10,769 nt of DNA from Chloroflexota bacterium. Its GTDB lineage: Bacteria > Chloroflexota > Dehalococcoidia > DSTF01 > JACRBR01. The notes beneath the pieces were generated by a model that was not told where the DNA came from, ran no database searches, and saw nothing but the letters and a program-made list of their open reading frames with translations. Made by a program: the position numbers and the translations under genes. Positions 112-10,009 of this stretch are shown piece by piece. Location: the NCBI GenBank assembly GCA_021813085.1, contig JAKAMA010000044.1:1-10769 (forward strand). The letters run 5' to 3'. Positions within the stretch are counted from its first letter, which is position 1, and each line of letters begins with the position of its first letter.

Positions 112-124
112 ATGGGCGGGGGGA

Positions 125-145
125 AGTCGGAGGTCAGAGGTCGGG
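125..145. repeat. Heptamer tandem array A (3 units)
   Basis: Three consecutive 7-bp units, AGTCGGA, GGTCAGA and GGTCGGG (consensus RGTCRGR), lie in the gap between the partial first gene and the recombinase-like gene. It is the shortest of a set of period-7 arrays in this window and would not be convincing alone. Confidence 0.5.
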
Positions 146-169
146 GGCGCGGGCTACCGGCCCATCGTC

Positions 170-195
170 GTAGCGAAGGAGCTTCAGCTCCGTCC
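170..195. repeat. Small intergenic palindrome (GGAGCT-TC-AGCTCC)
   Basis: GGAGCT (178-183) and AGCTCC (186-191) are a perfect inverted repeat, flanked on the left by CGTAG. It could be a worn copy of the CGTAG-bordered hairpin class seen at 9834-9941, or a chance palindrome. It sits 45 bases before the recombinase-like start codon and has no T-run. Confidence 0.25.
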
Positions 196-235
196 CCCGG
201 TGTGGCACGCTGCACCGCGGGGGACAGGTGTACAC

Positions 236-616
236 ATGACCATCGACGCCCCCGAAGAACAGCCCGTCGCGCTCCGCCCGATGCTCGACTACGCCGCCGT
301 GCGCACCTGGCTCGACGGTCTCCGCCAGCACTGGGGCGGCGACCCCGCGACCGACGACCCCGAGCGTCTGCCCGTCCTCGAAGCGTTCTGCCGCTACGCC
401 AACCGCGACCCCGACCAGATCATCAAGGAGACGACGATGATCAAGGACGGCGAGAGGCGCATTCGCATCAAGGGCCGCAACAAGTACGCCGCCCTGATCA
501 ATGAGTGGCAGGCCGGCGTCGAGGGCTCGCGCATCCGCAAGGCGAAGTGGGGCAACACCGTCCGCAGCTTCCTCATCCACAACGGCGTGCTGTTGCAGTC
601 GGGGGTGCAGGCGTAA
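236..616 (+). CDS. Orphan core-binding (SAM-like) domain resembling tyrosine recombinase N-terminus
   Basis: This 126-aa protein starts at ATG 236; a GGGGGACAGG purine stretch lies about 7 bases upstream, and the in-frame ATG at 200 would only add residues typical of non-coding sequence. Seen: an N-terminal helix (YAAVRTWLDGLRQHW), a second helix ending CRYANRDPDQIIKE, a basic middle (RRIRIKGRNKYAALINEWQ) and a C-terminal RKAKWGNTVRSFLIHNGV. The order 'helix, DPDxII, K..Y..LI..W, .R..K....(V/I)RSFL..NGV' is that of the DNA-clamping core-binding domain preceding the catalytic domain in phage/XerCD-type and archaeal integrases. The catalytic R...HxxR...Y domain is absent: TAA follows directly and a terminator-like hairpin begins 6 bases later. 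It may be a stand-alone DNA-binding protein, a recombinase remnant, or a look-alike. The family call is inferred from pattern only. Confidence 0.55.
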   Translation: MTIDAPEEQPVALRPMLDYAAVRTWLDGLRQHWGGDPATDDPERLPVLEAFCRYANRDPDQIIKETTMIKDGERRIRIKGRNKYAALINEWQAGVEGSRIRKAKWGNTVRSFLIHNGVLLQSGVQA

Positions 617-622
617 TCGAAA

Positions 623-646
623 GGGGCGCGCCCTGCGGCGCGCCCC
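623..646. terminator. GC hairpin between convergent genes (possible bidirectional terminator)
   Basis: GGGGCGCGCC (623-632) and GGCGCGCCCC (637-646) form a perfect 10-bp stem with a CTGC loop. It lies 6 bases past the stop of the plus-strand gene and 41 bases past the stop of the minus-strand gene, where a shared terminator is expected. There is no T-tract on either side, so it is not a canonical intrinsic terminator. Confidence 0.5.
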
Positions 647-650
647 TGCA

Positions 651-678
651 CGATTCACCATGAACGATTGACGATGAA
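651..678. repeat. Heptamer tandem array B (4 units)
   Basis: Four 7-bp units in perfect register, CGATTCA, CCATGAA, CGATTGA, CGATGAA, fill most of the gap between the hairpin at 623-646 and the stop codon at 688-690. Units differ by 1-3 bases but the phase is kept throughout. Confidence 0.6.
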
Positions 679-687
679 CTCGTCCCC

Positions 688-987
688 CTACGCCCGCCGC
701 CGCTCCGACAGCACGACCGTCAGCCGCACATCCTTGAGCACCGCGCGCGCCGCCTCTCCCTGGCCGATGTCGAGGCAATCGCAGTAGGCGGAGAAGATCG
801 AGCGGTCGAGCAGCCTGAGCCCCGCCTCGTTCAGCTCGTCGAAGTGGTCCCGCCGCAGCCGTAGCAGGCGCCGCAGCCGGCTCAGGTAGCCGTCCTTGAG
901 CTGCTCGGGGCGTGCCTTCGAGATCTCCGGGATCATCGCGCGCACGTCCTTCGCCGTCCGTGTCCTCGTCGTCTGAGCGCGCGTCAT
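688..987 (-). CDS. Small basic protein translationally coupled to the NarL-type regulator (unknown function)
   Basis: This 99-aa protein's ATG (987-985) overlaps the TGA of the regulator gene (TGATG), so coupled translation is likely. Seen: a Thr/Arg-rich start (MTRAQTTRTRTAKDV), then a helical body with a run of basic residues (YLSRLRRLLRLRRDHFDELN), the segment GLRLLDRSIFSAYCDCLDIGQGEAA with two cysteines spaced CDC, and an Arg-rich end. There is no signal peptide or membrane segment. I do not recognise a named family. The tight overlap suggests it works with the response regulator, for example as a partner or modulator. The longer frame extending upstream to 1263 lies antisense-free but out of frame inside the regulator gene, so it is discounted. 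Confidence 0.75.
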   Translation of the reverse strand: MTRAQTTRTRTAKDVRAMIPEISKARPEQLKDGYLSRLRRLLRLRRDHFDELNEAGLRLLDRSIFSAYCDCLDIGQGEAARAVLKDVRLTVVLSERRRA

Positions 988-1715
988 CAGCCGACCGCCG
1001 TCTCTTCCACGCCCAGCTCGGGCCCGCTGTCCAGCCCGACGATGCCCTTGCGGATCGCGTAGCGGATCAGGTCCGTCCGGTTCTGCGCGTGCAGCTTCGA
1101 CATGATGTGCGCCTTGTGCGCCTCCACCGTCTTGACGCTGATGAAGAGCTCGCCCGCGATCTTCTGGTTCGAGTACCCCTCGGCGATGAGCTGGAGCACC
1201 TCGCGCTCGCGGCTGGTCAGCAGGTCGAAGCCGGTCTTCGACTCGGGCTTCTTCGCCTGCCACAGGTAGTCCTGCACCGCGTCGCCGTCGCTGATCGACG
1301 AGCTGAAGTACGTGTTGCCGCGGTGCACCGACTGGATCCCCAGCAGCAGCTCCTGCACGTCCGACTTCTTGACGACGTAGCCACTGGCCCCCGCCCGCAG
1401 CGCAGCGAGGATCTGCTCGTCCTCCATGTAGCCCGTCAGGATCAGCACCTTCGTCTTCGGCGCCCGGCGGCGGATCTGGCGCGTCGCCTCCAGGCCGTTC
1501 AGGCCCGGCATCACCATGTCCATCAACACGACGTCCGGGTGGAGCTTCTCCACCGATTCCAGCGCCTCGCGGCCGTTCGCGGCGTCGCCGACGACGTCGA
1601 CTTCGGACTGCGCCTCCAGCAACATCTTCAGCGCCTGCCGCAGCACCGCGTGGTCATCGACGATTAGGACCTTGATGCGTCCTGCGTGCGCCCGCGGCGC
1701 GTTCCCACCGATCAT
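987..1715 (-). CDS. NarL/FixJ-family response regulator (receiver + LuxR HTH)
   Basis: This 242-aa two-domain transcription regulator starts at ATG 1715-1713 (MIGGNAPRAH), five bases after a strong Shine-Dalgarno GGAGGGA (1727-1721); the in-frame ATG at 1745 has none. The N-terminal receiver has the acidic pair (IVDDH, residues 20-21), the phosphoacceptor Asp in VVLMDMVMPG (residue 66), the conserved Thr in LILTG (94) and the Lys in YVVKK (116). The C-terminal LuxR-type helix-turn-helix spans about 166-208 (LTSREREVLQLIAEG, then NQKIAGELFISVKTVEAH). All phosphorylation and DNA-contact landmarks are present, so it should be activated by a histidine kinase; none is encoded in this window. The downstream 99-aa gene overlaps its stop codon. 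TARGGG/CCCCTA motifs precede it and could be self-binding sites. The family call is firm; the regulon is unknown. Confidence 0.95.
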   Translation of the reverse strand: MIGGNAPRAHAGRIKVLIVDDHAVLRQALKMLLEAQSEVDVVGDAANGREALESVEKLHPDVVLMDMVMPGLNGLEATRQIRRRAPKTKVLILTGYMEDEQILAALRAGASGYVVKKSDVQELLLGIQSVHRGNTYFSSSISDGDAVQDYLWQAKKPESKTGFDLLTSREREVLQLIAEGYSNQKIAGELFISVKTVEAHKAHIMSKLHAQNRTDLIRYAIRKGIVGLDSGPELGVEETAVG

Positions 1716-1778
1716 CTGGCTCCCTCCATCCTGCTCGTGGCGCACATCCTGCGCCCGTCTCTGCGTTGCTCAGCCCCC

Positions 1779-1803
1779 GAAACCCCTAAGGGTTTCTTAA
1801 GGG
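1779..1803. promoter_or_regulatory. Inverted repeat and 11-bp-spaced TAAGGG motifs upstream of the regulator
   Basis: GAAACCC (1779-1785) and GGGTTTC (1790-1796) form a perfect 7-bp inverted repeat around CTAA. On the plus strand TAAGGG occurs at 1787-1792 and 1798-1803, 11 bp apart, about one helical turn. The block lies between the zinc-ribbon stop and the regulator start. It could be an operator or an attenuator-like hairpin; I infer operator because similar words recur at 2110-2160. Confidence 0.4.
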
Positions 1804-1817
1804 AGTCTGCCAAAGTA

Positions 1818-2051
1818 TTACGCGCCGGCCCGCGCGGGCAAAACCGGCTCCTGCCCCACGTCCGGCAGGAGCGCCACCGCCGCGCCTACCGCGGCCGCCT
1901 CCTCGTGCGCCGACCGGCCCGGCGGCTCGACCGACGCCGGATAGGTGCGCGCCGCGCCGCAGCGCTTGCAGCGCCCCCGCACCAGGTCGTCCTCGCCGGG
2001 CGCGCCCAGCACCCAGTGGTGCACGCAGGGCTCCATCGATGATTCAGGCAT
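1818..2051 (-). CDS. Small zinc-ribbon-like protein
   Basis: This 77-aa protein begins at ATG 2051-2049, five bases after a near-ideal Shine-Dalgarno (GGAGGTGG). The N-terminal 40 residues contain C9, H11/H12-W, then after about 15 residues GRCKRCG (C28, C31) followed by AARTYPAS. A Cys/His pair plus CxxCG is the layout of a minimal zinc ribbon, so one zinc ion is expected. Residues 41-77 are Pro/Ala/Glu-rich and probably disordered. It precedes the NarL-type regulator by about 100 bases in the same direction and may share its regulation. Molecular role unknown: such minimal ribbons bind nucleic acid or protein partners, but nothing here tells which. Confidence 0.75.
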   Translation of the reverse strand: MPESSMEPCVHHWVLGAPGEDDLVRGRCKRCGAARTYPASVEPPGRSAHEEAAAVGAAVALLPDVGQEPVLPARAGA

Positions 2052-2080
2052 CTGCCACCTCCGCCATTCCGAACGACGGG

Positions 2081-2160
2081 ATTATCCGCCCGTTGCAGAT
2101 CCCTGCACATAAGGGTTTCCCCTGACAAACCGTAGGGGATTACCCCTAATTTCCGTAGGG
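2081..2160 (-). promoter_or_regulatory. Putative activator-dependent promoter of the zinc-ribbon gene with repeated TAGGGG/CCCCTA sites
   Basis: On the minus strand GATAAT (2086-2081) could be a -10 element about 30 bases before the start codon, with no good -35 at the expected distance. Upstream are TAAGGG (2110-2115), the inverted repeat TAGGGG-ATTA-CCCCTA (roughly 2133-2148) and GTAGGG (2155-2160), all plus-strand coordinates. AGGGG/CCCCT half-sites in inverted array are typical of NarL-family targets, and the neighbouring gene encodes such a regulator. The pairing of site and protein is inference. Confidence 0.4.
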
Positions 2161-2334
2161 AGCGTAGGTGCGCGGCGGTGGCCGGCGCAGGGCGCTCGGC
2201 GGCGGACTGTCGGGCGGCGGACGGTCGTGGGTCGATGGTCGGGCGGCTGCCGGTGGGTATTCGGCCTCCGAAACTCGGGGAGGGCCGGGCCTCGGGCGCT
2301 GGCGCCCGGTGCGCCGCCCTGCGCCCGCGATTCC
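2161..2334. other. Gene-free GC-rich spacer
   Basis: No credible ORF is seen in this stretch before the tRNA-His promoter. It contains the heptamer units at 2221-2241 and a short hairpin, CGGGCGC (2293-2299) with GCGCCCG (2302-2308). Divergent transcription units start on either side, so no terminator is needed and none is evident. Confidence 0.5.
2221..2241. repeat. Heptamer tandem array C (3 units)
   Basis: ACGGTCG, TGGGTCG and ATGGTCG follow one another with GGTCG (or GTCG) repeating every 7 bp. Short and weaker than the arrays at 9411-10009, but with the same period and again intergenic. Confidence 0.4.
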
Positions 2335-2364
2335 TTGACCCCCTTCGAAGCCCGATGCTACCTT
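2335..2364 (+). promoter_or_regulatory. Putative sigma-70 promoter for tRNA-His and the downstream gene
   Basis: TTGACC (2335-2340), an 18-bp spacer and TACCTT (2359-2364) resemble a housekeeping -35/-10 pair. The predicted start lies about 55 bases before tRNA-His. It probably also serves the protein gene that starts 37 bases after the tRNA. Confidence 0.5.
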
Positions 2365-2428
2365 GGGACGGACGGCGGAGTGGCGGCGTTGTGTGCCGCC
2401 CGCGCGCAGCGCATCCGCCGCCGCGCGT

Positions 2429-2505
2429 GGTGGGCGTAGCCTAGCGGTTAAGGCGCCAGGTTGTGGCCCTGGAGATCGAGGGTTCAAATCCCTCCGTCCA
2501 CCCCA
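2429..2505 (+). tRNA. tRNA-His (GTG anticodon), CCA encoded
   Basis: Full cloverleaf. The acceptor stem GTGGGCG (2430-2436) pairs with CGTCCAC (2495-2501) with one G-T pair. The anticodon stem CCAGG/CCTGG (2456-2460/2468-2472) encloses TTGTGGC with anticodon GTG at 2463-2465. The T arm is GAGGG-TTCAAAT-CCCTC (2478-2494). The extra G-1 at 2429, specific to tRNA-His, is encoded and pairs with discriminator C at 2502. CCA is encoded at 2503-2505. Confidence 0.97.
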
Positions 2506-2542
2506 TCCCTCCATCGACAGCACGTCCCCGAAGGAGCCCCCA

Positions 2543-3598
2543 GTGCCCGAACACGAGACGCCGCAGCCGGCCGAGGGCGCCGCCGTGCCAGACCCCGGCG
2601 AGACCGCACCCGTGCCGGCGGACGATGCACCCTCGATGGCCATCGATGGCGAGGATTGGCAGGATGCGCCCGAGCGCGCTGGCCGGGGCACGCCCTGGCC
2701 GGTGCTCCTGGCGTTGGCGGTCGTGCCGGCAGTCATTGTCGGGCTGGCGGTGTGGTTCTTCGCGCCGGGCGGAAGCAGCAGCGGCCGCTCGGGGCAAGAT
2801 GTCGCGAGCGTGCTCAACGCCTTCAGCGCCCAGCCGAACACGACGACGAGGCGCTTCGAGGGCCAGCTACCGCCGGGGTTCCCGGCCGGCGTACCACGGT
2901 ATCCGGGCGCGCACATCGTCTCGTCGCTGCTCCAGATCCGCGGCGCCGATGCCGCCTACCTCGTCGTGTACGACACCGGGGCGGCGCAGGATACCGTCGC
3001 GAAGTACTATCAGGACAAGCTGAACGCCGACCCCTGGCAACTGCAGGGCGGCCAGTCCGATACCAACGGCGCGCTGCATCAGTTCAGCGACATCAAGGAT
3101 CCGAGCCTGTCCGGGCTGGTGCTCATCTCGTCTTCGGTCGGCGGCAACGTGACGACGATCCTGGAGAGCGTGACGGTCATCGGCGGCGCGAAGGCGGCGG
3201 GCACCCAAGCGTATGCGCCGGGACCGAGCAAGGCCCTCCCGGCCGGCTTCCCGGCGGGGATTCAGCCCTACCCCGGCTCGATCACGACATCGGCGGCGTA
3301 CCGGAAGCAGCCGCAAGGCAGCTCGTACATCGTCACCTTCGTCACGAAGGATGCCGCCGACAAGGTGCTCGACTACTACCGAAAGCAGTTGGCGGCCAAC
3401 GGCTGGACGGTCCAGGACAGCACGCCGCTGTCGCCTCCCGCCGCGACACCGACCCAGGCGGCGACCGCGATCACGTTCAAGGACAGCACGTCGAAGATCT
3501 CGGGCAGCATTACCACCGGCACCGTCGCGCAGGACGCGAGCTACACCAGCATCGACGTGCAGGTCTCGGTGGGGACGGCGGGCGCGGGCGGCAACTGA
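2543..3598 (+). CDS. Membrane-anchored protein with a duplicated extracytoplasmic domain (unknown function)
   Basis: This 351-aa protein begins at GTG 2543, six bases after AAGGAG (2531-2536); a longer frame upstream would run through tRNA-His and is rejected. Residues 1-50 are acidic and Pro-rich and probably cytoplasmic. Residues 51-73 (WPVLLALAVVPAVIVGLAVWFFA) form one membrane helix. The rest, flexible and Ser/Gly/Thr-rich, should lie outside. Two copies of one module follow: residues 108-170 (LPPGFPAGVPRYPGA ... VAKYYQDKLNADPWQL) and 232-293 (LPAGFPAGIQPYPGS ... VLDYYRKQLAANGWTV). Each has a GFPAG-x-x-x-YPG opening, a strand-rich middle and a YY-x-x-(K/Q)-L helix ending in a Trp. I do not recognise a named family. 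It sits directly after tRNA-His and is followed by a hairpin, so it is probably read with the tRNA. No enzyme motif is visible; a surface or binding role is a guess. Confidence 0.85.
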   Translation: MPEHETPQPAEGAAVPDPGETAPVPADDAPSMAIDGEDWQDAPERAGRGTPWPVLLALAVVPAVIVGLAVWFFAPGGSSSGRSGQDVASVLNAFSAQPNTTTRRFEGQLPPGFPAGVPRYPGAHIVSSLLQIRGADAAYLVVYDTGAAQDTVAKYYQDKLNADPWQLQGGQSDTNGALHQFSDIKDPSLSGLVLISSSVGGNVTTILESVTVIGGAKAAGTQAYAPGPSKALPAGFPAGIQPYPGSITTSAAYRKQPQGSSYIVTFVTKDAADKVLDYYRKQLAANGWTVQDSTPLSPPAATPTQAATAITFKDSTSKISGSITTGTVAQDASYTSIDVQVSVGTAGAGGN

Positions 3599-3608
3599 GC
3601 GCCCAGTG

Positions 3609-3628
3609 GCGGCGGCGCACGCCGCCGC
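3609..3628 (+). terminator. GC hairpin after the duplicated-domain gene
   Basis: GCGGCGGC (3609-3616) pairs perfectly with GCCGCCGC (3621-3628) around GCAC, starting 10 bases past the stop codon. CCTCTTTCC follows, which is only weakly T-rich. A plausible but imperfect intrinsic terminator. Confidence 0.5.
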
Positions 3629-3663
3629 GGCCTCTTTCCGCGCCCGGGTTGGCGCTGCACCTG

Positions 3664-3672
3664 TGCTAGACT
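3664..3672 (+). promoter_or_regulatory. Putative extended -10 promoter of tRNA-Arg
   Basis: TGCTAGACT contains a TG-N extension followed by TAGACT (3667-3672), 38 bases before the tRNA. No good -35 lies 16-18 bp upstream, which an extended -10 can tolerate. Confidence 0.4.
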
Positions 3673-3709
3673 GCCCGCACGACGCGCCGGGCGCCGGCGC
3701 CGACCTCTC

Positions 3710-3785
3710 GCGCTCGTAGCTCAGCGGATAGAGCATCGGTCTTCGGAACCGGGGGTCGGGGGTTCGAATCCCTCCGAGCGCGCCA
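3710..3785 (+). tRNA. tRNA-Arg (TCG anticodon), CCA encoded
   Basis: Full cloverleaf. The acceptor stem GCGCTCG (3710-3716) pairs fully with CGAGCGC (3775-3781). The anticodon stem TCGGT/ACCGG encloses CTTCGGA with anticodon TCG at 3743-3745, reading CGA and related Arg codons. The T arm is GGGGG-TTCGAAT-CCCTC (3758-3774). The discriminator is G (3782) and CCA is encoded at 3783-3785. Confidence 0.96.
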
Positions 3786-3824
3786 CTTCTACGAGGGAAC
3801 CCGCCGCCGCGTGCGCGTCGGATT

Positions 3825-3930
3825 GGCCTTGCCGCCGGGGAATGACAGCAACGGTGACAGCAACCCGGCGCGCCATTGCCGGGCAAGGCCGCCGGTGCAA
3901 GCCCGGTAACCGTCGCGCGGGTGGTACCTG
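3825..3930 (+). ncRNA. Structured non-coding stretch of unknown type
   Basis: Several nested complementarities are visible: GGCCTTGCC (3825-3833) with GGCAAGGCC (3882-3890); CCCGGC (3864-3869) with GCCGGG (3878-3883), which shares two bases with the first stem; and the direct repeat TGACAGCAAC at 3843-3852 and 3855-3864. GCCGGTGCAAGCCCGGTAACC and a T-box-like word GGGTGGTACC (3919-3928) follow. Pieces recall cobalamin, SAM or T-box leaders, but none of those folds can be assembled completely. It may be a leader of the short ORF at 3934, a tRNA-Arg trailer, or decayed sequence. Confidence 0.3.
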
Positions 3931-3933
3931 TCT

Positions 3934-4095
3934 ATGGTTCCGAGGCAGATGCTGTGTGACGCGCAGTTCAAGGTCATTGTCGACGCCATCCGCAACCTCA
4001 AGGAGCCGCCCAACGGGCCGCAGGCCGTAGCCCGACGCCTTGGCGTGCGGCCCGTGGACCGCGTGCGCTTTCGCCTCGCCGGCCGGAGTGCCTAG
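3934..4095 (+). CDS. Possible 53-aa protein with HTH-like segment
   Basis: ATG 3934 to TAG 4093-4095 encodes MVPRQMLCDAQFKVIVDAIR followed by a segment NGPQAVARRLGVRPVDRVRF that looks like the first part of a helix-turn-helix, and an Arg-rich end. Codons are mostly GC-ending as in real genes here. Against it: no Shine-Dalgarno is seen before ATG 3934, and it is short. An internal ATG at 3949 has GAGG too close to help. It could be a small DNA-binding protein, the remnant of a larger regulator, or chance. Confidence 0.35.
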   Translation: MVPRQMLCDAQFKVIVDAIRNLKEPPNGPQAVARRLGVRPVDRVRFRLAGRSA

Positions 4096-4221
4096 GAGCG
4101 TGACAACGGCATCGCGACCGTGCGCCTGGATCGCGACGAACGGTCAACGACGCGCTGCACGGTCCGGCGCCGGGTGGCGAGGGCCATCCGTTGCTGCTCG
4201 CGCCTGCTTCGGACCGCCGCC

Positions 4222-4227
4222 TATACT
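4222..4227 (+). promoter_or_regulatory. Putative -10 element of pheS
   Basis: TATACT stands out from its GC-rich surroundings and would start transcription about 30 bases before the pheS ATG. No convincing -35 is seen 16-18 bp upstream. The 126 bases between the preceding short ORF and this element hold nothing else I can name. Confidence 0.45.
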
Positions 4228-4264
4228 GGGGCACCGCCGGCACCAGCACGCATCGGAACCTGAG

Positions 4265-5305
4265 ATGGCCGACACCGTCCCGCATTTGCGCACCGAAGCG
4301 CTCGCCGCGCTCGCCGAAGCGGCGGACGACGCCGCGCTCGCCACCTGGCACGTCCGTTACCTCGGCCGCAAGGAAGGCAGGCTCACCGGCGTCCTCCGCG
4401 GCCTCGCGCAGCTCCCGGTCGAAGAGCGCAGGGCCGTCGGCGCGGCCGCGAACGCACTCAAGGCCGAGCTGGAGGCCGCGTACGAGGAGCAGCGCGAAGC
4501 ACTGCGCCGCATGGCGGTCCGCCAGGCACTCGAGGGCGGCAGCGTGGACGTGACGTTACCGCCGCGCCCGCGCGCGCGCGGGCGGCTGCATCCGGTGACG
4601 CAGACGCTCCGGCAGATGCTCGACGCCTTCCGCTCGATGGGCTTCTCCATCGTCGAAGGGCCGGAGGTCGAGCTGGACTACTACAACTTCGAGGCGCTGC
4701 GCATCCCGGCCGACCACCCGGCGCGCGACATGTGGGATACGCTCTGGGTCGATGACGGGACGCCGCGGCCGCGCTCGCTGCTGATGCGCACGCATACGTC
4801 GCCGGCGCAGATCCGCGTCATGGAGCAGCACCAGCCGCCCATCCGCATCGTCGTCCCCGGCCGCGCCTACCGGCACGAGGCCACGGACACGACGCACGAG
4901 TGGATGATGACGCAGGTCGAGGTGCTGGCCGTGGACGAGGGGCTGACGCTGGCCCACCTGAAGGGCACGCTGCTCGGCGTCATGCAGCGGCTCTTCGGCT
5001 CGGAGCGCCGGATCCGGCTCCAGTGCTCGTACTTCCCGTTCGTCGAGCCGGGCGCCGAGGTGGCGATGGACTGCTTCAACTGCGCCGGCACGGGCTGCGC
5101 GACGTGCCACCAGAGCGGCTGGATCGAGATGGGCGGCGCCGGCATGGTGCACCCCGAGATCCTGGAGCGCATGGGCATCGACCCTGCCCGCTACACGGGC
5201 TTCGCGGCGGGCATGGGCCTCGAGCGGCTGGCGATGCAGCTCTACGGCGTGCCGGACATGCGCTTCTTCTATCAGAACGACCTGCGGATGCTGCAACAGT
5301 TCTAG
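4265..5305 (+). CDS. pheS: Phenylalanine-tRNA ligase alpha subunit
   Basis: This 346-aa class II aminoacyl-tRNA synthetase catalytic subunit forms the (alpha-beta)2 enzyme that charges tRNA-Phe in the cytoplasm. ATG 4265 (MADTVPHLRTEAL) fits the family length (about 330-350); the frame extends upstream to 4040 but those residues look non-coding. Seen: an N-terminal coiled coil (about 1-90); FRSMGFSIVEGPEVELDYYNFEALRIPADHPARD (122-155); motif 2 around PGRAYRHEATDTTHEWMMTQVEV (198-220); a Cys-rich CFNC...CATC (270-281) before GWIEMGGAGMVHP; SYFPFVEPGAE (255-265); motif 3 in GMGLERL (316-322); and the NDLRMLQQF end. Motif 2 has MMTQVEV where FHQ(V/M)EG is usual, and motif 3 begins FAAGMG rather than FAFGMG. 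The start has only a weak Shine-Dalgarno. pheT follows after 12 bases. Confidence 0.97.
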   Translation: MADTVPHLRTEALAALAEAADDAALATWHVRYLGRKEGRLTGVLRGLAQLPVEERRAVGAAANALKAELEAAYEEQREALRRMAVRQALEGGSVDVTLPPRPRARGRLHPVTQTLRQMLDAFRSMGFSIVEGPEVELDYYNFEALRIPADHPARDMWDTLWVDDGTPRPRSLLMRTHTSPAQIRVMEQHQPPIRIVVPGRAYRHEATDTTHEWMMTQVEVLAVDEGLTLAHLKGTLLGVMQRLFGSERRIRLQCSYFPFVEPGAEVAMDCFNCAGTGCATCHQSGWIEMGGAGMVHPEILERMGIDPARYTGFAAGMGLERLAMQLYGVPDMRFFYQNDLRMLQQF

Positions 5306-5317
5306 AGCGGACCCCCG

Positions 5318-7780
5318 ATGCGAGTCTCCCTCAAGTGGCTGAGCGAGTACGTCGACCTGCACCTGCCGCCCGAAGAGCTGGCGCAGCGCCTGACGATGGC
5401 CGGCCTCGCGGTCGACACGGTCGCGCGCACGGGCGAATGGGGGCGGGACGTGCGCGTCGCCGAGGTGGTCGCCGTCACGCCGCACCCGAACGCCGACCGC
5501 CTGCGCCTGGCCACGGTCGATGTCGGCGGCGGCGAGCGGCACACCGTCGTCTGTGGCGCGCCAAACGTCGCGCCGGGCCAGAAGGTGGCGTTTGCCACGG
5601 CCGGCGCGCAGGTGCGCGACGGCCACAGCGGCAAGCCGGCGGTGCTCAAGCCTGCCGTCATCCGCGGCGTCGAGTCGGCTGGCATGGTGCTCAGTGAGCG
5701 CGAGCTGGGGCTGTCCGAAGACCACGAGGGCATTCTAGTGCTGCCGGCGGGCGCGGCCGTCGGCACGCCGCTCGCCGATGTGCTGGGCGACGTGATCTTC
5801 GAGCTGTCGGTGACGCCGAACCGCGCGGACTGGCTCTCGGTGCTCGGTATCGCGCGCGAGGTCGCCGCGCTCACGGGCGTGGAGGTGCGCGAGCCGTCGC
5901 TCGCGTACGAGGCGGCAGGCCCGCCGGTCAAGGGCCGCGCAAAGGTCGAGATCGAGGCGCCCGACCTGTGCCGCCGCTACCTGGCGACGGTCGTCGAGGG
6001 CGTCAAGCTCGGTCCATCGCCCGGCTGGATGCAGGAGCGCCTCGTCGCGCTCGGCCAGCGTCCGATCAACAACGTCGTCGACGTCACGAACTACGTGATG
6101 CTTGAGATCGGCCAGCCGCTGCACGCCTTCGACTACGACCACATCGCCGGCCATCAGATCATCGTGCGGCGCGCCAAGGACGGCGAGCGCTTCACGACGC
6201 TCGACAACGAGAAGCGGGCGCTCACGGACGACATGCTGGTGATTGCCGACGCGCGCGGGCCGGTGGCGCTCGCCGGCGTCATCGGCGGGCTGGAGAGCGA
6301 GGTGACGGAGCGCACGGTCAACGTGCTGCTCGAAGCGGCGTGCTTCGCCGGGCCGAACATCCGCCGCACGAGCACGGCGCTGCGGGCGCGCAGCGAGGCG
6401 TCGTCGCGCTTCGAGAAGGGGCTGCCGCCGGAGCTGGCGGCGACCGCGTCGCAGCGCGCGACCAAGCTGCTCGTCGAAGTCTGCGGCGGGCGGGCGCTCG
6501 CCGGCGCGGTCGACGTCTACCCGCGGAAGGAGCGCGCGGCGCGGGTCGAGGTGACGCGCGCGCGCATCGCGCAGGTCCTGGGCATCGACCCGCCGACCGC
6601 GAAGGTGCGCGAGGTGCTGACGAGGCTCGGCTTCACGGCACGCTGGGTGCCGCCGGACCGCTACGTCGTGCGCGTGCCGTACTGGCGTCCGGACGTGCGC
6701 ATCGCGGACGACGTCGCCGAAGAGGTCGCGCGCATCATCGGCTACGACCAGATCCCGGCCGCACAGCTTGCCGGCAGCGTCCCCGCACCGATCCCGCAGC
6801 CACTGCGCGACCTGCGCGAGCGCGCGCGCGACCTGCTCGCGGAGGCGGGGATGCAGGAGGTGATCACCTACTCGCTGACGACGATGGAGCTGCTGGCGCG
6901 CGTGCTGCCGAAGGAGGACCTGGCGATCGACCCGCCGTACCGCGTCGTCAACCCGGTGAGCGCCGAGCACGAGTACCTGCGCCCGACGCTGCGCGCGAGC
7001 CTGCTGCAGACGCTGGCCTCGAACCTGCGCTACCAGGAGGGCGCCGTCGCGCTGTTCGAGACCGCGCGCGTCTACCTGCGGCCGGCCATACCGCCACTCC
7101 GCGACGGCACCGCGGCGCGCGCGGACCGCCCCGCCGGCGAAGACGCGCTGCCCGTCGAGCGCGAGCAGGTGTGCGGCGTCGTCAGCGGGCGCCGGCCCGA
7201 CCGCTGGGGGCGGCCTTCGGCCGCGCCGCTCGACTTCTTCGACGCGAAGGCGTACGTCGAAGACCTGCTCCACGGCATCGGTGTCCGCGCGGAGTACGTC
7301 GCTGCCGTCGAGCACGGCATGGCGCCGGGGCGCACGGCGGAGCTGCGCGCCGGCGGCACGCGCATCGGCGTACTGGCGCAGGTGCACCCGGACGTCGCGG
7401 CGGTGTTCGGGATCGAGCAGGACACGTACCTGTTCGATCTGACGCTCGACGACCTGCTGCCGCACGCATCGCACCGCCGGACGATGCGCGACGTGCCGCG
7501 CTTCCCGGCGGTGGAGCAGGACATCGCGCTGATCGTCGGCCGCGAGACGCCGGCCGACGACGTGCGGCGCGCGATCGCGTCGGTGGCGCTCGTGCGCGAC
7601 GCGCAGGTCTTCGACGTGTACAGCGGCGACCAGGTGCCGCCGGGCAAGAAGTCGATCGCCTTCTCCGTCGCCTGGCAGGCGGACGACCACACGCTTACCG
7701 ATGGGGAGGTCGCAAAGGCGCAGCGCAAGCTCGTCGAGCGGCTGCGGCGCGAGTTCGGCGCGGAGCTGCGCGGCGGGTAG
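5318..7780 (+). CDS. pheT: Phenylalanine-tRNA ligase beta subunit
   Basis: This 820-aa protein is the structural, tRNA-binding and editing partner of PheS, at the usual length. Domains in order: N-terminal B1 (MRVSLKWLSEYVDL); an OB-fold tRNA-binding domain at about 40-150 (HPNADRLRLATVDVG at 56-70); the B3/B4 editing region about 210-390 (QRPINNVVDVTNYVMLE, GQPLHAFDYD, VIGG, SRFEKGL); B5 about 405-480 (VPYWRPDVRIADDVAEEVARIIGYD); the catalytic-like B6/B7 fold about 490-720; and the anticodon-binding FDX-ACB domain about 727-819 (PRFPAVEQDIALIV, DVYSG, KKSIAFSVAWQ). Residues 594-616 form an Ala/Arg/Asp-rich insert within B6/B7. It is 12 bases after pheS with a short GCGGA purine stretch, so one transcript. 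It ends 16 bases from the end of the opposite kinase gene. Confidence 0.98.
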   Translation: MRVSLKWLSEYVDLHLPPEELAQRLTMAGLAVDTVARTGEWGRDVRVAEVVAVTPHPNADRLRLATVDVGGGERHTVVCGAPNVAPGQKVAFATAGAQVRDGHSGKPAVLKPAVIRGVESAGMVLSERELGLSEDHEGILVLPAGAAVGTPLADVLGDVIFELSVTPNRADWLSVLGIAREVAALTGVEVREPSLAYEAAGPPVKGRAKVEIEAPDLCRRYLATVVEGVKLGPSPGWMQERLVALGQRPINNVVDVTNYVMLEIGQPLHAFDYDHIAGHQIIVRRAKDGERFTTLDNEKRALTDDMLVIADARGPVALAGVIGGLESEVTERTVNVLLEAACFAGPNIRRTSTALRARSEASSRFEKGLPPELAATASQRATKLLVEVCGGRALAGAVDVYPRKERAARVEVTRARIAQVLGIDPPTAKVREVLTRLGFTARWVPPDRYVVRVPYWRPDVRIADDVAEEVARIIGYDQIPAAQLAGSVPAPIPQPLRDLRERARDLLAEAGMQEVITYSLTTMELLARVLPKEDLAIDPPYRVVNPVSAEHEYLRPTLRASLLQTLASNLRYQEGAVALFETARVYLRPAIPPLRDGTAARADRPAGEDALPVEREQVCGVVSGRRPDRWGRPSAAPLDFFDAKAYVEDLLHGIGVRAEYVAAVEHGMAPGRTAELRAGGTRIGVLAQVHPDVAAVFGIEQDTYLFDLTLDDLLPHASHRRTMRDVPRFPAVEQDIALIVGRETPADDVRRAIASVALVRDAQVFDVYSGDQVPPGKKSIAFSVAWQADDHTLTDGEVAKAQRKLVERLRREFGAELRGG

Positions 7781-7796
7781 CCGTCGTGACGCAGCG

Positions 7797-8693
7797 TCAG
7801 GTCAGCGCCTCGAGCGACGCCGCGACCGCGATCGCCGGCTCCCAGCCCCGGCCGTGATCCTCGTACGACCAGAAGGCGGAGAGCACGGCCTGCGCCACGC
7901 CCCATCCGATGATCCGCGCACGGTCGATTCCCATTTCTTCGCTGAGCCGGTCGACGCGGCGCCGCAGGATCCTCGGCAGGTCCGGCCACGACACGATGCC
8001 GGGGAGCGGGTTGCGCAGGAGGGCGCCGGCCTCGTACGCGCGCTCGCCGATGACGCCCTTCGGGTCGATGGAGACCCACGCGCCGCCACCCGCATCGAGC
8101 ACATTCTCGTGGTGGAGGTCACCGTGCAGGACGACCGCTTCGCCGGACGAGGCCAGCAGTTCCTGGAAGTGCGCCTCCGCCGCCGCGACCAGACGCGAAG
8201 GCAGGGGACCCCGCGCGTCCGTCGGTGCGGCGGTGAACCGTGCAGCCCAACCGGCAACCGTCGGAAACGGGTAGGCACCGTCTGGAGGGCGCGAGAGCGC
8301 CCGCATGACCGCCGCGGCGATCGCGGTCGCGGCGTCGTCGTCGTGCAGCGCGACGAGCGCCGTGCCGGGTTCGATGCGTTCGAGGAGCAGGAGGCCCCGT
8401 TCCGGGTCGGCGTCGATGAGCCGCGCGCTGCCATGGCCGTCGAAGTGCCGAAGCGCGGCGATCTCGTTGCGCGTTTCGCGCGACGGAAACCCTGCCTTGA
8501 GGACGGCGCGCCCGCCGTCCTCGCGGAGGGCTGGTGCGACGTAGTTGTACGAGAGCGAGAACGGCTCCTGCAGCCGGATCTCCCAGCGCTCCTCAGCCAC
8601 ACGGAGCAGGGCCGGCAGGCGCCTCAACCACACGCTGCCGTCCGGACCGTACACGTCGGTGATCCGGCGCTGGAACGTGCTACTGAGCTTCAT
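7797..8693 (-). CDS. APH(6)/hydroxyurea-kinase-like phosphotransferase
   Basis: This 298-aa kinase-fold protein is taken to start at ATG 8693-8691 (MKLSSTFQRR); the frame continues upstream but overlaps the preceding gene in the wrong frame. Seen: an N-terminal lobe with SLSYNYVAPAL and a lysine in RAVLKAGFP (residue 66) suited to ATP binding; E77 in ETRNEIAALRH; the hinge-like LLLLERIEPGTAL; the catalytic loop LHGDLHHENVL (189-199, Asp192 and Asn197); and the metal-binding D in SIDPKG (210). These are the signatures of the aminoglycoside 6-phosphotransferase/hydroxyurea kinase family, which includes streptomycin kinases; many chromosomal members have unknown natural substrates. No good Shine-Dalgarno precedes it, so it may rely on translation of the upstream glutaredoxin-like gene 29 bases away. 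Resistance is possible but unproven. Confidence 0.9.
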   Translation of the reverse strand: MKLSSTFQRRITDVYGPDGSVWLRRLPALLRVAEERWEIRLQEPFSLSYNYVAPALREDGGRAVLKAGFPSRETRNEIAALRHFDGHGSARLIDADPERGLLLLERIEPGTALVALHDDDAATAIAAAVMRALSRPPDGAYPFPTVAGWAARFTAAPTDARGPLPSRLVAAAEAHFQELLASSGEAVVLHGDLHHENVLDAGGGAWVSIDPKGVIGERAYEAGALLRNPLPGIVSWPDLPRILRRRVDRLSEEMGIDRARIIGWGVAQAVLSAFWSYEDHGRGWEPAIAVAASLEALT

Positions 8694-8722
8694 CTGGTGT
8701 GCCGCCGCGTGTGCCCGGGGCC

Positions 8723-9025
8723 CTACGCCTCGTCCATGCGCGCGCCCGCGAGATCCTCGTGTGGGTTGTACGGCGTGAAGCCGAGCAGCTCGTCGATCGC
8801 CTCCTCGTCGAAGCCGACGACGACCTCGCCGTCGATCACGGTCACCGGCGTCCCGCTCGCGCCGAGGTCCAGCAGCTCCCGCCGGGCGGACGGGTCGGCA
8901 TCGACGTCTCGCTCGGTGTAGGGCTGGCCGCGCGACGCGAGGTGCAGGCGCACCATCTCGGAGAACTCGCACGAGCCCGCGGCGTACAGCGTGACCGCGT
9001 GCTCGACCAGCGGCATCTCGGGCAT
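8723..9025 (-). CDS. Glutaredoxin-like protein with a CxxS active site
   Basis: This 100-aa thioredoxin-fold protein has a strand (VTLYAAGSCEFSEM) carrying C19-E-F-S22 where glutaredoxins have CPYC; a helix (VRLHLASRGQPYTERDVDADPSARREL); the cis-proline segment GTPVTVIDGEVVVGF (58-72); and the last helix DEEAIDELLGF. Retention of only the N-terminal Cys (CxxS) is the monothiol pattern, implying a glutathionylation-type or metal-centre role rather than full dithiol reduction; here even that is inferred. Start: ATG 9025 or the in-frame ATG at 9016, neither with a clear Shine-Dalgarno. It begins 8 bases after rplT ends and so is probably the fourth gene of the infC operon. Confidence 0.88.
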   Translation of the reverse strand: MPEMPLVEHAVTLYAAGSCEFSEMVRLHLASRGQPYTERDVDADPSARRELLDLGASGTPVTVIDGEVVVGFDEEAIDELLGFTPYNPHEDLAGARMDEA

Positions 9026-9033
9026 GCGCGATG

Positions 9034-9390
9034 CTACGCCGGCGCGCCCGTGGCCTTCTGCGCCATGGCGGCGAAGGCCTGCGGCTCGCGCACCGCGAGG
9101 TCGGCGAGCATCTTGCGGTCGACGGCGATGCCGGCCCGCGCGAGGCCGGCGATGAGCCGGCTGTAGGTGGTGCCGTTGAGACGCGCCGCAGCGTTGATGC
9201 GCGCGATCCAGAGCCGGCGGAAGTCGCCCTTGCGCTCGCGCCGATGCCCGTAGGCGTAGTCGAGCGCGTGCAGCACCGACTCGTTGGCGCGCCGGAAGAC
9301 GCGGTGGCGCTGCCCCTTGTGCCCCGCGGCGAGGCCGATGATCTTCTTGTGGCGGGCGCGGGCGGTGACGCCGCGTTTCACTCGACTCAT
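9034..9390 (-). CDS. rplT: Large ribosomal subunit protein bL20
   Basis: This 118-aa protein, the usual length, is an early 23S rRNA-binding assembly protein. It opens [35 protein letters not shown], the basic RNA-threading extension, followed by [34 protein letters not shown], the conserved globular part. AGGAGG lies five bases before the ATG. In other bacteria L20 represses its own operon by binding the mRNA; the unusual hairpin of repeats just upstream (9411-9477) is where such control would act, but no L20-site mimic was recognised. Confidence 0.98.
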
Positions 9391-9410
9391 GGGGTCCTCC
9401 TTCGTCGGAC

Positions 9411-9477
9411 AGAACCTAGAACCAAGAACTTAGAACCTACAGCCTCGGAATCACCGGGTTCTTGGTCCTAGGTCCTA
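9411..9477 (-). repeat. Heptamer arrays D and E forming a 20-bp hairpin between rpmI and rplT
   Basis: Array D is AGAACCT, AGAACCA, AGAACTT, AGAACCT (9411-9438). Array E is GGTTCTT, GGTCCTA, GGTCCTA (9457-9477). They are inverted relatives: 9411-9430 pairs with 9457-9476 over 20 positions with three mismatches, two of which become G-U pairs in the minus-strand transcript. The loop is 26 bases. Array D ends 21 bases before the rplT ATG, just outside its Shine-Dalgarno. Confidence 0.75.
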
Positions 9478-9485
9478 CGCGCGCA

Positions 9486-9686
9486 CTAGCGCGCGTACGG
9501 CAGCAGGCGCCGCAGCAGGCGCTGGCCGGGCTTGCTGACGACGAGCATCTCGTCGATCTGGCGGCGCGCCTGCTTCGACATGCGCGTCTTGTTGTGGCTG
9601 ATGTTGCCCTTGCGGCGCGTGAACCTGCCCGAGCCGGTGACCTTGAAGCGGCGGGCCGCGCCCCTGTGCGTCTTGAGCTTTGGCAT
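9486..9686 (-). CDS. rpmI: Large ribosomal subunit protein bL35
   Basis: This 66-aa basic ribosomal protein opens with the family signature MPKLKTHRGAARRFKVTGSGRFTRRKG and ends RLLRRLLPYAR. The length is normal. A GGAAAG Shine-Dalgarno-like stretch lies about 7 bases before the ATG, with an array of heptamers immediately upstream of it (9706-9761). It sits between infC and rplT, the standard order for this operon. Confidence 0.97.
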   Translation of the reverse strand: MPKLKTHRGAARRFKVTGSGRFTRRKGNISHNKTRMSKQARRQIDEMLVVSKPGQRLLRRLLPYAR

Positions 9687-9705
9687 CGGAGTTCTTTCCG
9701 TCGTT

Positions 9706-9761
9706 AGTAGTCAGTAGTCGGTAATCAGTAGTCAGTAGTCGGTGGTCAGTGGTCGGTACTC
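9706..9761. repeat. Heptamer tandem array F (8 units)
   Basis: This is the longest array: eight 7-bp units, consensus RGTRGTC. Unit AGTAGTC occurs four times; the others are GGTAATC, GGTGGTC, AGTGGTC and GGTACTC. It ends 20 bases before the rpmI start codon, leaving room only for the Shine-Dalgarno. Read from the minus strand it will be present in the infC-rpmI message. Confidence 0.85.
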
Positions 9762-9833
9762 GTCAGTCGTTGCCGCCCGCGTTACCGCCGGCCGGCCGCT
9801 CAGTCTAGCAGGCCCACCGCCGTCATGGCAGGG

Positions 9834-9867
9834 GGCGCAACGCCTTGCGCCCCTACGACTCCCGCCC
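9834..9867. repeat. Palindromic intergenic repeat, copy 1
   Basis: This is a 34-bp element beginning GGCGCAACGCCTTGCGCCCC and ending TACGACTCCCGCCC. GGGCGCAA and TTGCGCCC form an 8-bp stem around CGCC. It matches copy 2 (9908-9941) at 33 of 34 positions. It lies in the infC-rpmI gap. Confidence 0.85.
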
Positions 9868-9907
9868 CCGCTGCTGCAGCAGTATGGCGATGGCCTGATC
9901 GTGCTCA

Positions 9908-9941
9908 GGCGCAACGCCTTGCGCCCCTACGATTCCCGCCC
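9908..9941. repeat. Palindromic intergenic repeat, copy 2
   Basis: This is the second 34-bp copy, in the same orientation 74 bp away; the only difference is T for C in TACGA(T/C)TCCCGCCC. CGTCATGGCAGG occurs just before copy 1 and just after copy 2, as if a larger unit were partly duplicated. Read on the minus strand it contains CGTAGGGGCGCAAGGCGTTG, the style of dispersed palindromes in high-GC bacterial gene gaps. Confidence 0.85.
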
Positions 9942-9974
9942 ACGTCATGGCAGGCCGCCGGGCGGGCATGGCGG

Positions 9975-10009
9975 CTTCCATCTTCCACCCTCTACCTTCC
10001 AGTGTCCGG
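9975..10009. repeat. Heptamer tandem array G (4-5 units)
   Basis: CTTCCAT, CTTCCAC, CCTCTAC and CTTCCAG stand in perfect 7-bp register, with TGTCCGG as a possible decayed fifth unit. It starts 30 bases past the infC stop codon. The 353-base infC-rpmI gap thus holds arrays F and G plus two palindromic repeats and no credible gene. Confidence 0.65.

What the first reader, a model, noticed from the sequence alone, without database searches (positions are those of the whole stretch)
125..10009. Seven intergenic arrays with a shared 7-bp period but different unit sequences
Arrays at 125-145, 651-678, 2221-2241, 9411-9438, 9457-9477, 9706-9761 and 9975-10009 all repeat every 7 bp without phase slips, yet units differ (RGTCRGR, CGATKMA, NNGGTCG, AGAACCT, GGTCCTA, RGTRGTC, CTTCCAN). 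All are in gene gaps. Heptanucleotide tandem repeats (STRRs) are described in filamentous cyanobacteria; here the conserved property seems to be the period, not the sequence. That suggests a generating process such as templated slippage or a polymerase/primase signature.
Basis: partly seen in the sequence, partly recalled or inferred. Interest (0 to 1): 0.7.

Follow-up and report, generated by a model that had tools for sequence, protein, structure and literature searches.

The report
Seven-base repeats end a mobile cassette
The seven-base repeats scattered between genes here look like gene-less relics of small mobile cassettes that carry a 'four helix bundle' gene between two mirror-image repeat arrays, which would join two bacterial puzzles that have been described separately.

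Summary
The lag-7 signal is real. Five of the 7 listed arrays beat shuffled gaps. In 572 kb of the same genome, lag 7 gives 29 strong arrays against 0.3 in shuffles; lags 5, 8, 10 and 13 give none.

First, arrays can be inverted pairs: 9411-9445 and 9457-9477 are the arms of one hairpin. Second, a gene goes with them. All 3 PF05635 genes detected in this genome (IVP, 'four helix bundle protein') lie between inverted heptamer arrays, each with a different unit.

Of 121 IVP loci from seven phyla, 69 have lag-7 arrays on both sides (controls: 0 of 42 and 1 of 103). Units on the two sides are reverse-complementary in 66 of 76 pairs. On plasmids, cassettes are absent from matching sites in relatives, and one site has cassette, empty and gene-less-hairpin versions.

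Solo arrays of this genome share units with its own and its order's cassettes. The window's clear arrays are best read as gene-less derivatives. How the cassette moves, and why the period is 7, are inferred.

The parts
122..145 (.). Solo heptamer array (AGTCGGA GGTCAGA GGTCGGG), GGTC-type unit
   Evidence: P = 0.002 against shuffled gap; the stretch is not conserved in the matching region of G001
651..678 (.). Weak heptamer array (CGATTCA CCATGAA CGATTGA CGATGAA) just after a hairpin
   Evidence: P = 0.078 on adjacent units; lag-14 segment 644-679; diverged 7-spaced sequence at the same place in G001
2221..2241 (.). Listed array that is not distinguishable from chance in this G+C-rich gap
   Evidence: P = 0.110; partly kept in G001
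9411..9445 (.). Arm 1 (AGAACCT units) of a hairpin between rpmI and rplT
   Evidence: Best array of the gap, 0 of 500 shuffles; 9411-9429 pairs with 9458-9476 in the predicted fold
9457..9477 (.). Arm 2 (GGTTCTT GGTCCTA GGTCCTA) of the same hairpin
   Evidence: the gap is 12-22 bp without arrays in 7 of 14 genomes compared
9700..9770 (.). Solo array (GTAGTCA units) between infC and rpmI; same unit as the IVP cassette on contig C325
   Evidence: 0 of 500 shuffles; unit 7/7 identical to the C325 cassette; gap 353 bp here, -8 to 168 bp and no array in 11 relatives
9975..9999 (.). Solo array (CTTCCAT CTTCCAC CCTCTAC CTTC) in the same gap
   Evidence: Score 8.0 against a 95% limit of 6.5

Best explanation
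The arrays are the ends, or gene-less relics, of a small mobile cassette. The complete cassette is about 0.5 kb: one gene for an IVP protein ('four helix bundle', PF05635) between two heptamer arrays, mostly of 4-5 units, that are inverted and share a unit. It sits between genes, also inside operons. SHOWN here: the association of gene and arrays, inverted ends, the dominance of period 7, presence and absence at matching plasmid sites, and one site with cassette, empty and gene-less versions. INFERRED: (1) the window's clear arrays are gene-less derivatives; (2) IVP, a pentamer in a solved relative, binds the arrays with about one heptamer per subunit, so that spacing is fixed while sequence drifts with the protein; (3) IVP itself, or an enzyme not identified here, moves the DNA; (4) replication slippage changes array length. 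My confidence is for (1) with the shown part; for step (2) it is about 0.3, and for step (3) there is no direct evidence.
For: Three of 3 IVP genes detected in G000 have inverted arrays on both sides, with three units. In 121 loci lag 7: left 87, right 83, both 69; controls both sides 0 of 42 other genes and 1 of 103 small genes; shuffled flanks 0. Inverted unit match in 66 of 76 loci; mean 0.845 against 0.521 +- 0.016 permuted for the 69 with period 7. Array length has its mode at 4-5 units also at a lower threshold. Six of 7 plasmid cassettes searched have relatives with both flanks and no cassette; one site has all three states. Unit matches of 31 solo arrays: own cassettes 10 (null 3.3, 1 of 1000), order 25 (null 13.1, 0 of 1000). 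Gaps rpmI-rplT and infC-rpmI are short and free of arrays in many relatives.
Against: In G000's own sample neighbouring solo arrays are not inverted more than chance (8 pairs, 4 of them inverted), so most solo arrays show one arm only. 52 of 121 IVP loci lack a detected lag-7 array on at least one side, and 10 of 76 pairs are not inverted. G005 has arrays but no detected IVP gene. A short duplication of the target (GTAAT) shows at 1 of 4 empty sites read. Solo units also match other Chloroflexota cassettes somewhat above chance at 6/7 (26 against 19.5). The rise of unit similarity with protein identity can be plain descent. In Xanthomonas most heptamer arrays keep their place between two species, and the authors saw no general link with mobile elements (PMC4692102, passages). 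No movement was observed.
Confidence: 0.72

Rival explanations
1. The arrays are regulatory sites. IVP or another protein binds heptamer arrays in RNA or DNA and controls the neighbouring gene; the copies at both ends and the solo copies are kept for that.
For: The left array ends a median of 19.5 bases before the IVP start codon. The Beggiatoaceae paper proposes translational control by TAACTGA repeats (PMC4679880, passages).
Against: It does not by itself explain inverted ends, empty sites or the gene-less hairpin at a cassette site. It can be true as well as the cassette reading.
Confidence: 0.12
2. Heptamer arrays arise by slippage or another copying process wherever it can start; IVP genes merely lie in the same kind of gap.
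For: Copy number varies at shared sites: an array differs in length between G000 and G001; PMC4679880 reports indels in steps of 7 (passages). The arms agree in unit but not in the order of variant units (26.8 against 26.6 matches, P = 0.57, 32 loci).
Against: Both-sided arrays at 69 of 121 IVP loci against 0 of 42 and 1 of 103 controls; shared inverted unit; shared units within the lineage.
Confidence: 0.08
3. The cassette moves through an RNA copy made by a reverse transcriptase, as in diversity-generating retroelements, whose Avd protein resembles IVP.
For: 11 of 24 IVP proteins match the Avd model weakly, best E 7e-9; PMC10053308 notes the likeness (passages).
Against: No RVT_1 match in G000, which is 77% complete, nor in 10 of 18 IVP-bearing genomes, 6 of them with 10 or more IVP matches.
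Confidence: 0.06

Closest known systems
Intervening sequences (IVS) of 23S rRNA genes with an S23p/IVP gene, e.g. the Coxiella IVS (PMC4990558; passages)
   Same: IVP gene, complementary ends, tandem heptamers before the gene with copy number that varies between strains; called a selfish element
   Different: That IVS lies in 23S rRNA. The cassettes read here lie between genes or in protein operons, have arrays at both ends, and have gene-less relatives; that paper does not present the heptamers as a general feature in the passages I saw
Heptanucleotide repeats of cyanobacteria (STRR), GGGAATC of Xanthomonas and GGGGAYT of Nostoc (PMC4692102; passages), TAACTGA of Beggiatoaceae (PMC4679880; passages)
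   Same: Mostly intergenic heptamer arrays; in X. campestris 186 arrays, 70 cases of convergent pairs, most of 4 units; X. campestris also has the IVP protein XCC0516
   Different: No IVP link is given in the passages seen; in Nostoc PCC 7120 few pairs were found, and none of its GGGGAYT repeats on plasmids
Avd protein of diversity-generating retroelements
   Same: Distant sequence relation (11 of 24 members)
   Different: Far below the Avd cut-off (22.5 of 80 bits for the C325 protein); no reverse transcriptase found in 10 of 18 IVP-bearing genomes
MITEs and REP elements (recalled)
   Same: Short gene-less intergenic elements with inverted arms
   Different: Their ends are kept as sequence; here the spacing is kept and the sequence changes between lineages
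Ring proteins that read repeated short RNA motifs, such as TRAP (recalled)
   Same: One repeat unit per subunit is the proposed way of reading
   Different: Binding by IVP is not shown

Membership tests
PF05635 / TIGR02436 (IVP, four helix bundle): genes inside the cassettes, none in the window itself | Score above the curated cut-off | tested here: met
   131.9, 100.1 and 95.5 bits against 33.8 for the three G000 genes; TIGR02436 matches 24 of 24 members scanned
PF05635 / TIGR02436 (IVP, four helix bundle): genes inside the cassettes, none in the window itself | Pentameric ring | not testable with these tools
   Sequence relatives 2gsc and 2rld have solved structures with five chains each; PMC4990558 describes the X. 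campestris protein as a homopentamer
IVS of 23S rRNA | Lies inside a 23S rRNA gene | tested here: not met
   Window: Rfam finds two tRNAs only. The plasmid cassettes with annotated neighbours lie beside protein genes
IVS of 23S rRNA | Complementary ends around an IVP gene | tested here: met
   66 of 76 loci with two arrays of one period; met by cassettes, not by the window, which has no IVP gene
IVS of 23S rRNA | Removed from RNA by RNase III | not testable with these tools
   Reported for Coxiella (PMC4990558)
Heptanucleotide STRR | Intergenic tandem heptamers | tested here: met
DGR Avd | Avd model score above 80 bits | tested here: not met
   22.5 bits for the C325 protein
DGR Avd | Reverse transcriptase in the genome | tested here: not met
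   None in G000 (77% complete) and in 10 of 18 IVP-bearing genomes by PF00078
MITE (gene-less derivative of a mobile element) | A related gene-bearing element with the same ends | tested here: met
   C325 cassette shares the unit of 9700-9770; L307 and L386 at one plasmid site
MITE (gene-less derivative of a mobile element) | Duplication of the target site | tested here: inconclusive
   GTAAT at 1 of 4 empty sites read
Transposon with terminal inverted repeats of fixed sequence | Same end sequence in all copies | tested here: not met
   Units differ between cassettes, also among the three of G000

The most novel reading that the evidence does not exclude
A class of mobile element whose ends are recognised by geometry. 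A pentameric IVP ring docks on about five units spaced 7 bases apart, nearly whatever their sequence, and IVP itself, with its near-invariant Q34, R37, S41, N45, E48 and E71 (117 of 121 proteins), is the mobility factor. Heptamer repeats reported in several phyla would be its footprints.
Probability: 0.25. Interest if true: 0.93.

Novelty: new variant of a known kind. Interest (0 to 1): 0.8.

Why it matters
Heptamer repeats in bacteria and the widespread 'four helix bundle protein' have each been reported without an explained function. If they are parts of one mobile element, both can be tested together, annotators can recognise cassettes and relics, and the constant period becomes a structural question about a protein ring. 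Cassettes also sit inside CRISPR and restriction operons of plasmids, so they may affect how such operons are read.

Tried and rejected
Slippage with no partner gene: rejected as the only cause, because units are shared within cassettes and within a lineage.

Movement by a reverse transcriptase: not supported.

Selection for exact pairing between the arms: no excess over shuffled unit order in 32 loci.

Solo arrays of this genome as regular inverted pairs: not significant (8 pairs; 430 of 2000 random draws reach the observed mean).

IVP-bearing against IVP-free genomes: 14 arrays (score 12 or more) in 534 kb of 7 IVP-bearing genomes, 0 in 215 kb of 7 IVP-free ones, 2 in 14 kb of an eighth IVP-free one, G005. 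Suggestive only, since lineage and genome size differ.

Phages: no IVP match for one query. One Y1 transposase match in G000 was not linked to arrays. PMC8700078 (passages) and PMC4666352 (passages) gave nothing decisive.
Full report
OBSERVATION. The window is contig C10 of a genome of 2.52 Mb in 399 contigs, 77% complete. Its five best named matches by InfC are Chloroflexota genomes, at 55-62% identity (nearer records may be left out there). In the window's gaps only lags 7 and 14 rise strongly (z = 5.6 and 5.0). Five of the seven listed arrays beat shuffled gaps; 651-678 and 2221-2241 do not. In 68 contigs of the genome (571,762 bp; 5 fetched because they held an AGTAGTC match), 29 lag-7 segments score 14 or more, against 0.3 in shuffles. 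Lags 5, 8, 10 and 13 have none, lag 11 has 1, lags 6 and 9 have 8 and 6. Outside the 5 pre-chosen contigs my simple gene caller puts 23 of 33 arrays (score 12 or more) in gaps and 10 in called genes.

Some arrays face a second one with the reverse-complement unit. In the window 9411-9429 pairs with 9458-9476 in the predicted fold, though the fold energy alone is modest (z = -2.2). In the genome sample this is not general: of 8 neighbouring solo pairs 4 are inverted, not above chance as a group.

Two inverted pairs flank a small gene. It is PF05635, the 23S rRNA intervening-sequence protein (IVP), which NCBI names 'four helix bundle protein'. Three such genes are detected in this genome, on C325, C1 and C159. 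All three have arrays on both sides in inverted orientation, with three different units.

SCALE. The plasmids are from Cyanobacteriota, Bacteroidota, Spirochaetota, Bacillota, Pseudomonadota, Gemmatimonadota and Chloroflexota. Three coordinates were wrong and were corrected. Lag 7: left 87, right 83, both 69 of 121. Lag 8: 10, 10, 8. Lags 4-6 and 9-13: at most 3 on a side and 1 on both. Controls, lag 7: other genes of the window's genome and relatives, left 1, right 1, both 0 of 42; small genes of this genome, left 5, right 10, both 1 of 103; shuffled flanks, both 0. Some cassettes have clear 8-bp arrays (L251, L314).

ENDS. In 76 loci the two arrays share a period (69 at 7, 7 at 8). The left unit matches the reverse complement of the right one at 0.7 or better in 66 of 76; a direct match at that level occurs in 15. 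For period 7 the mean is 0.845 against 0.521 +- 0.016 with permuted partners. Arrays mostly have 4-5 units, also at a lower threshold. Median cassette length is 514 bp. The arms agree in unit but not in the order of variant units (32 loci), so they are not kept as exact partners.

UNIT AND PROTEIN. Unit similarity rises with IVP identity (Spearman 0.22; 0 of 500 permutations reach it; 67 loci): at 70-80% identity the mean is 0.81, at 20-40% about 0.5. Shared descent alone could give this.

MOBILITY. For 7 plasmid cassettes I searched for relatives of the whole stretch. Six have relatives with both flanks and, by length and annotation, no cassette. For the seventh, L304, the nearest relative has other sequence in that gap. 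I read four empty sites. Trichormus against Nostoc linckia is clean, with GTAAT on both sides of the cassette; at the other three the sequence at the joint differs and no duplication is clear. Cassettes lie between cas10 and cmr3, between cas6 and cas4 (two), and between hsdS and hsdR, the last with stops in its IVP frame. At the TraM locus related plasmids carry a cassette (L307), nothing (L387), and a gene-less hairpin with a like unit (L386, 97% identical to L307 over the matched 77%).

BACK TO THE WINDOW. Of 14 genomes compared, the rpmI-rplT gap is 12-22 bp without arrays in 7. Four of the family hold array insertions there: AGAACCT hairpins in G000 and G004, an ACAACAG hairpin in G006, a weak array in G005. 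Three have longer gaps without clear arrays. The infC-rpmI gap is 353 bp here and -8 to 168 bp without arrays in 11 relatives; two more could not be scored. Array 9700-9770 has exactly the unit of the C325 cassette. Of 31 solo arrays outside the pre-chosen contigs, 10 match own cassette units at 6/7 or better (null 3.3), 25 match those of the rest of the order (null 13.1), 26 match those of other Chloroflexota (null 19.5, 6 of 1000), and 11 match plasmid cassettes (null 10.4); exact matches are 6, 9, 0 and 0. I conclude that the window's clear arrays are gene-less derivatives of IVP cassettes.

MECHANISM. IVP relatives with solved structures are 2gsc and 2rld, five chains in each entry; PMC4990558 describes the X. 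campestris protein as a homopentamer. I propose one heptamer per subunit, which would explain a fixed period, free sequence and 4-5 units. This is inference. A reverse transcriptase is not required on the genome evidence. The mobility enzyme is unknown; six polar residues are nearly invariant in IVP (117 of 121 sequences, the 4 shorter ones left out).

KNOWN WORK. The Coxiella IVS paper reports tandem heptamers before S23p (PMC4990558, passages). The Xanthomonas and Nostoc paper reports inverted heptamer pairs, finds no general link to mobile elements, and finds 90% of the X. campestris arrays between the same genes in X. axonopodis (PMC4692102, passages), which speaks against frequent movement there. 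In some searches I found no paper that joins heptamer arrays with IVP genes in general. The library holds open-licence papers only, and for most hits I saw the listing only, so this is not proof of novelty.

Noticed in passing
window about 9831-9870 and 9907-9941: Two near-identical REP-like palindromes (GGCGCAACGCCTTGCGCC followed by CCTACGA) in the infC-rpmI gap; another palindrome-rich stretch near 166-200.
   Followed up: no
window 623-650: A strong G+C hairpin (GGGGCGCGCC...GGCGCGCCCC) directly before the weak 651-678 array, kept in G001.
   Followed up: partly
G000 C25:7623-8023 (L030): A 401-bp array of about 57 heptamers (GCGGGAA/GCGGGAG), the longest seen in the sample; 6/7 like the C159 cassette unit.
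   Followed up: partly
L251, L245, L303, L314: IVP loci with 8-bp instead of 7-bp arrays on one or both sides.
   Followed up: partly
L298, L303, L304, L320: IVP cassettes inside CRISPR (cas10/cmr3, cas6/cas4) and type I restriction operons of plasmids.
   Followed up: partly
G006 C18:239402-245779: A cluster of IVP matches, several of them fragments or with stops, within about 6.4 kb.
   Followed up: no
IVP alignment, numbering of the C325 domain: Q34, R37, S41, N45, E48 and E71 are 95-100% conserved in 117 proteins and five of them are spaced as one helix face.
   Followed up: no
G000 C114:4176-4505: One Y1 transposase (PF01797) match, a possible mover of the REP-like palindromes.
   Followed up: no
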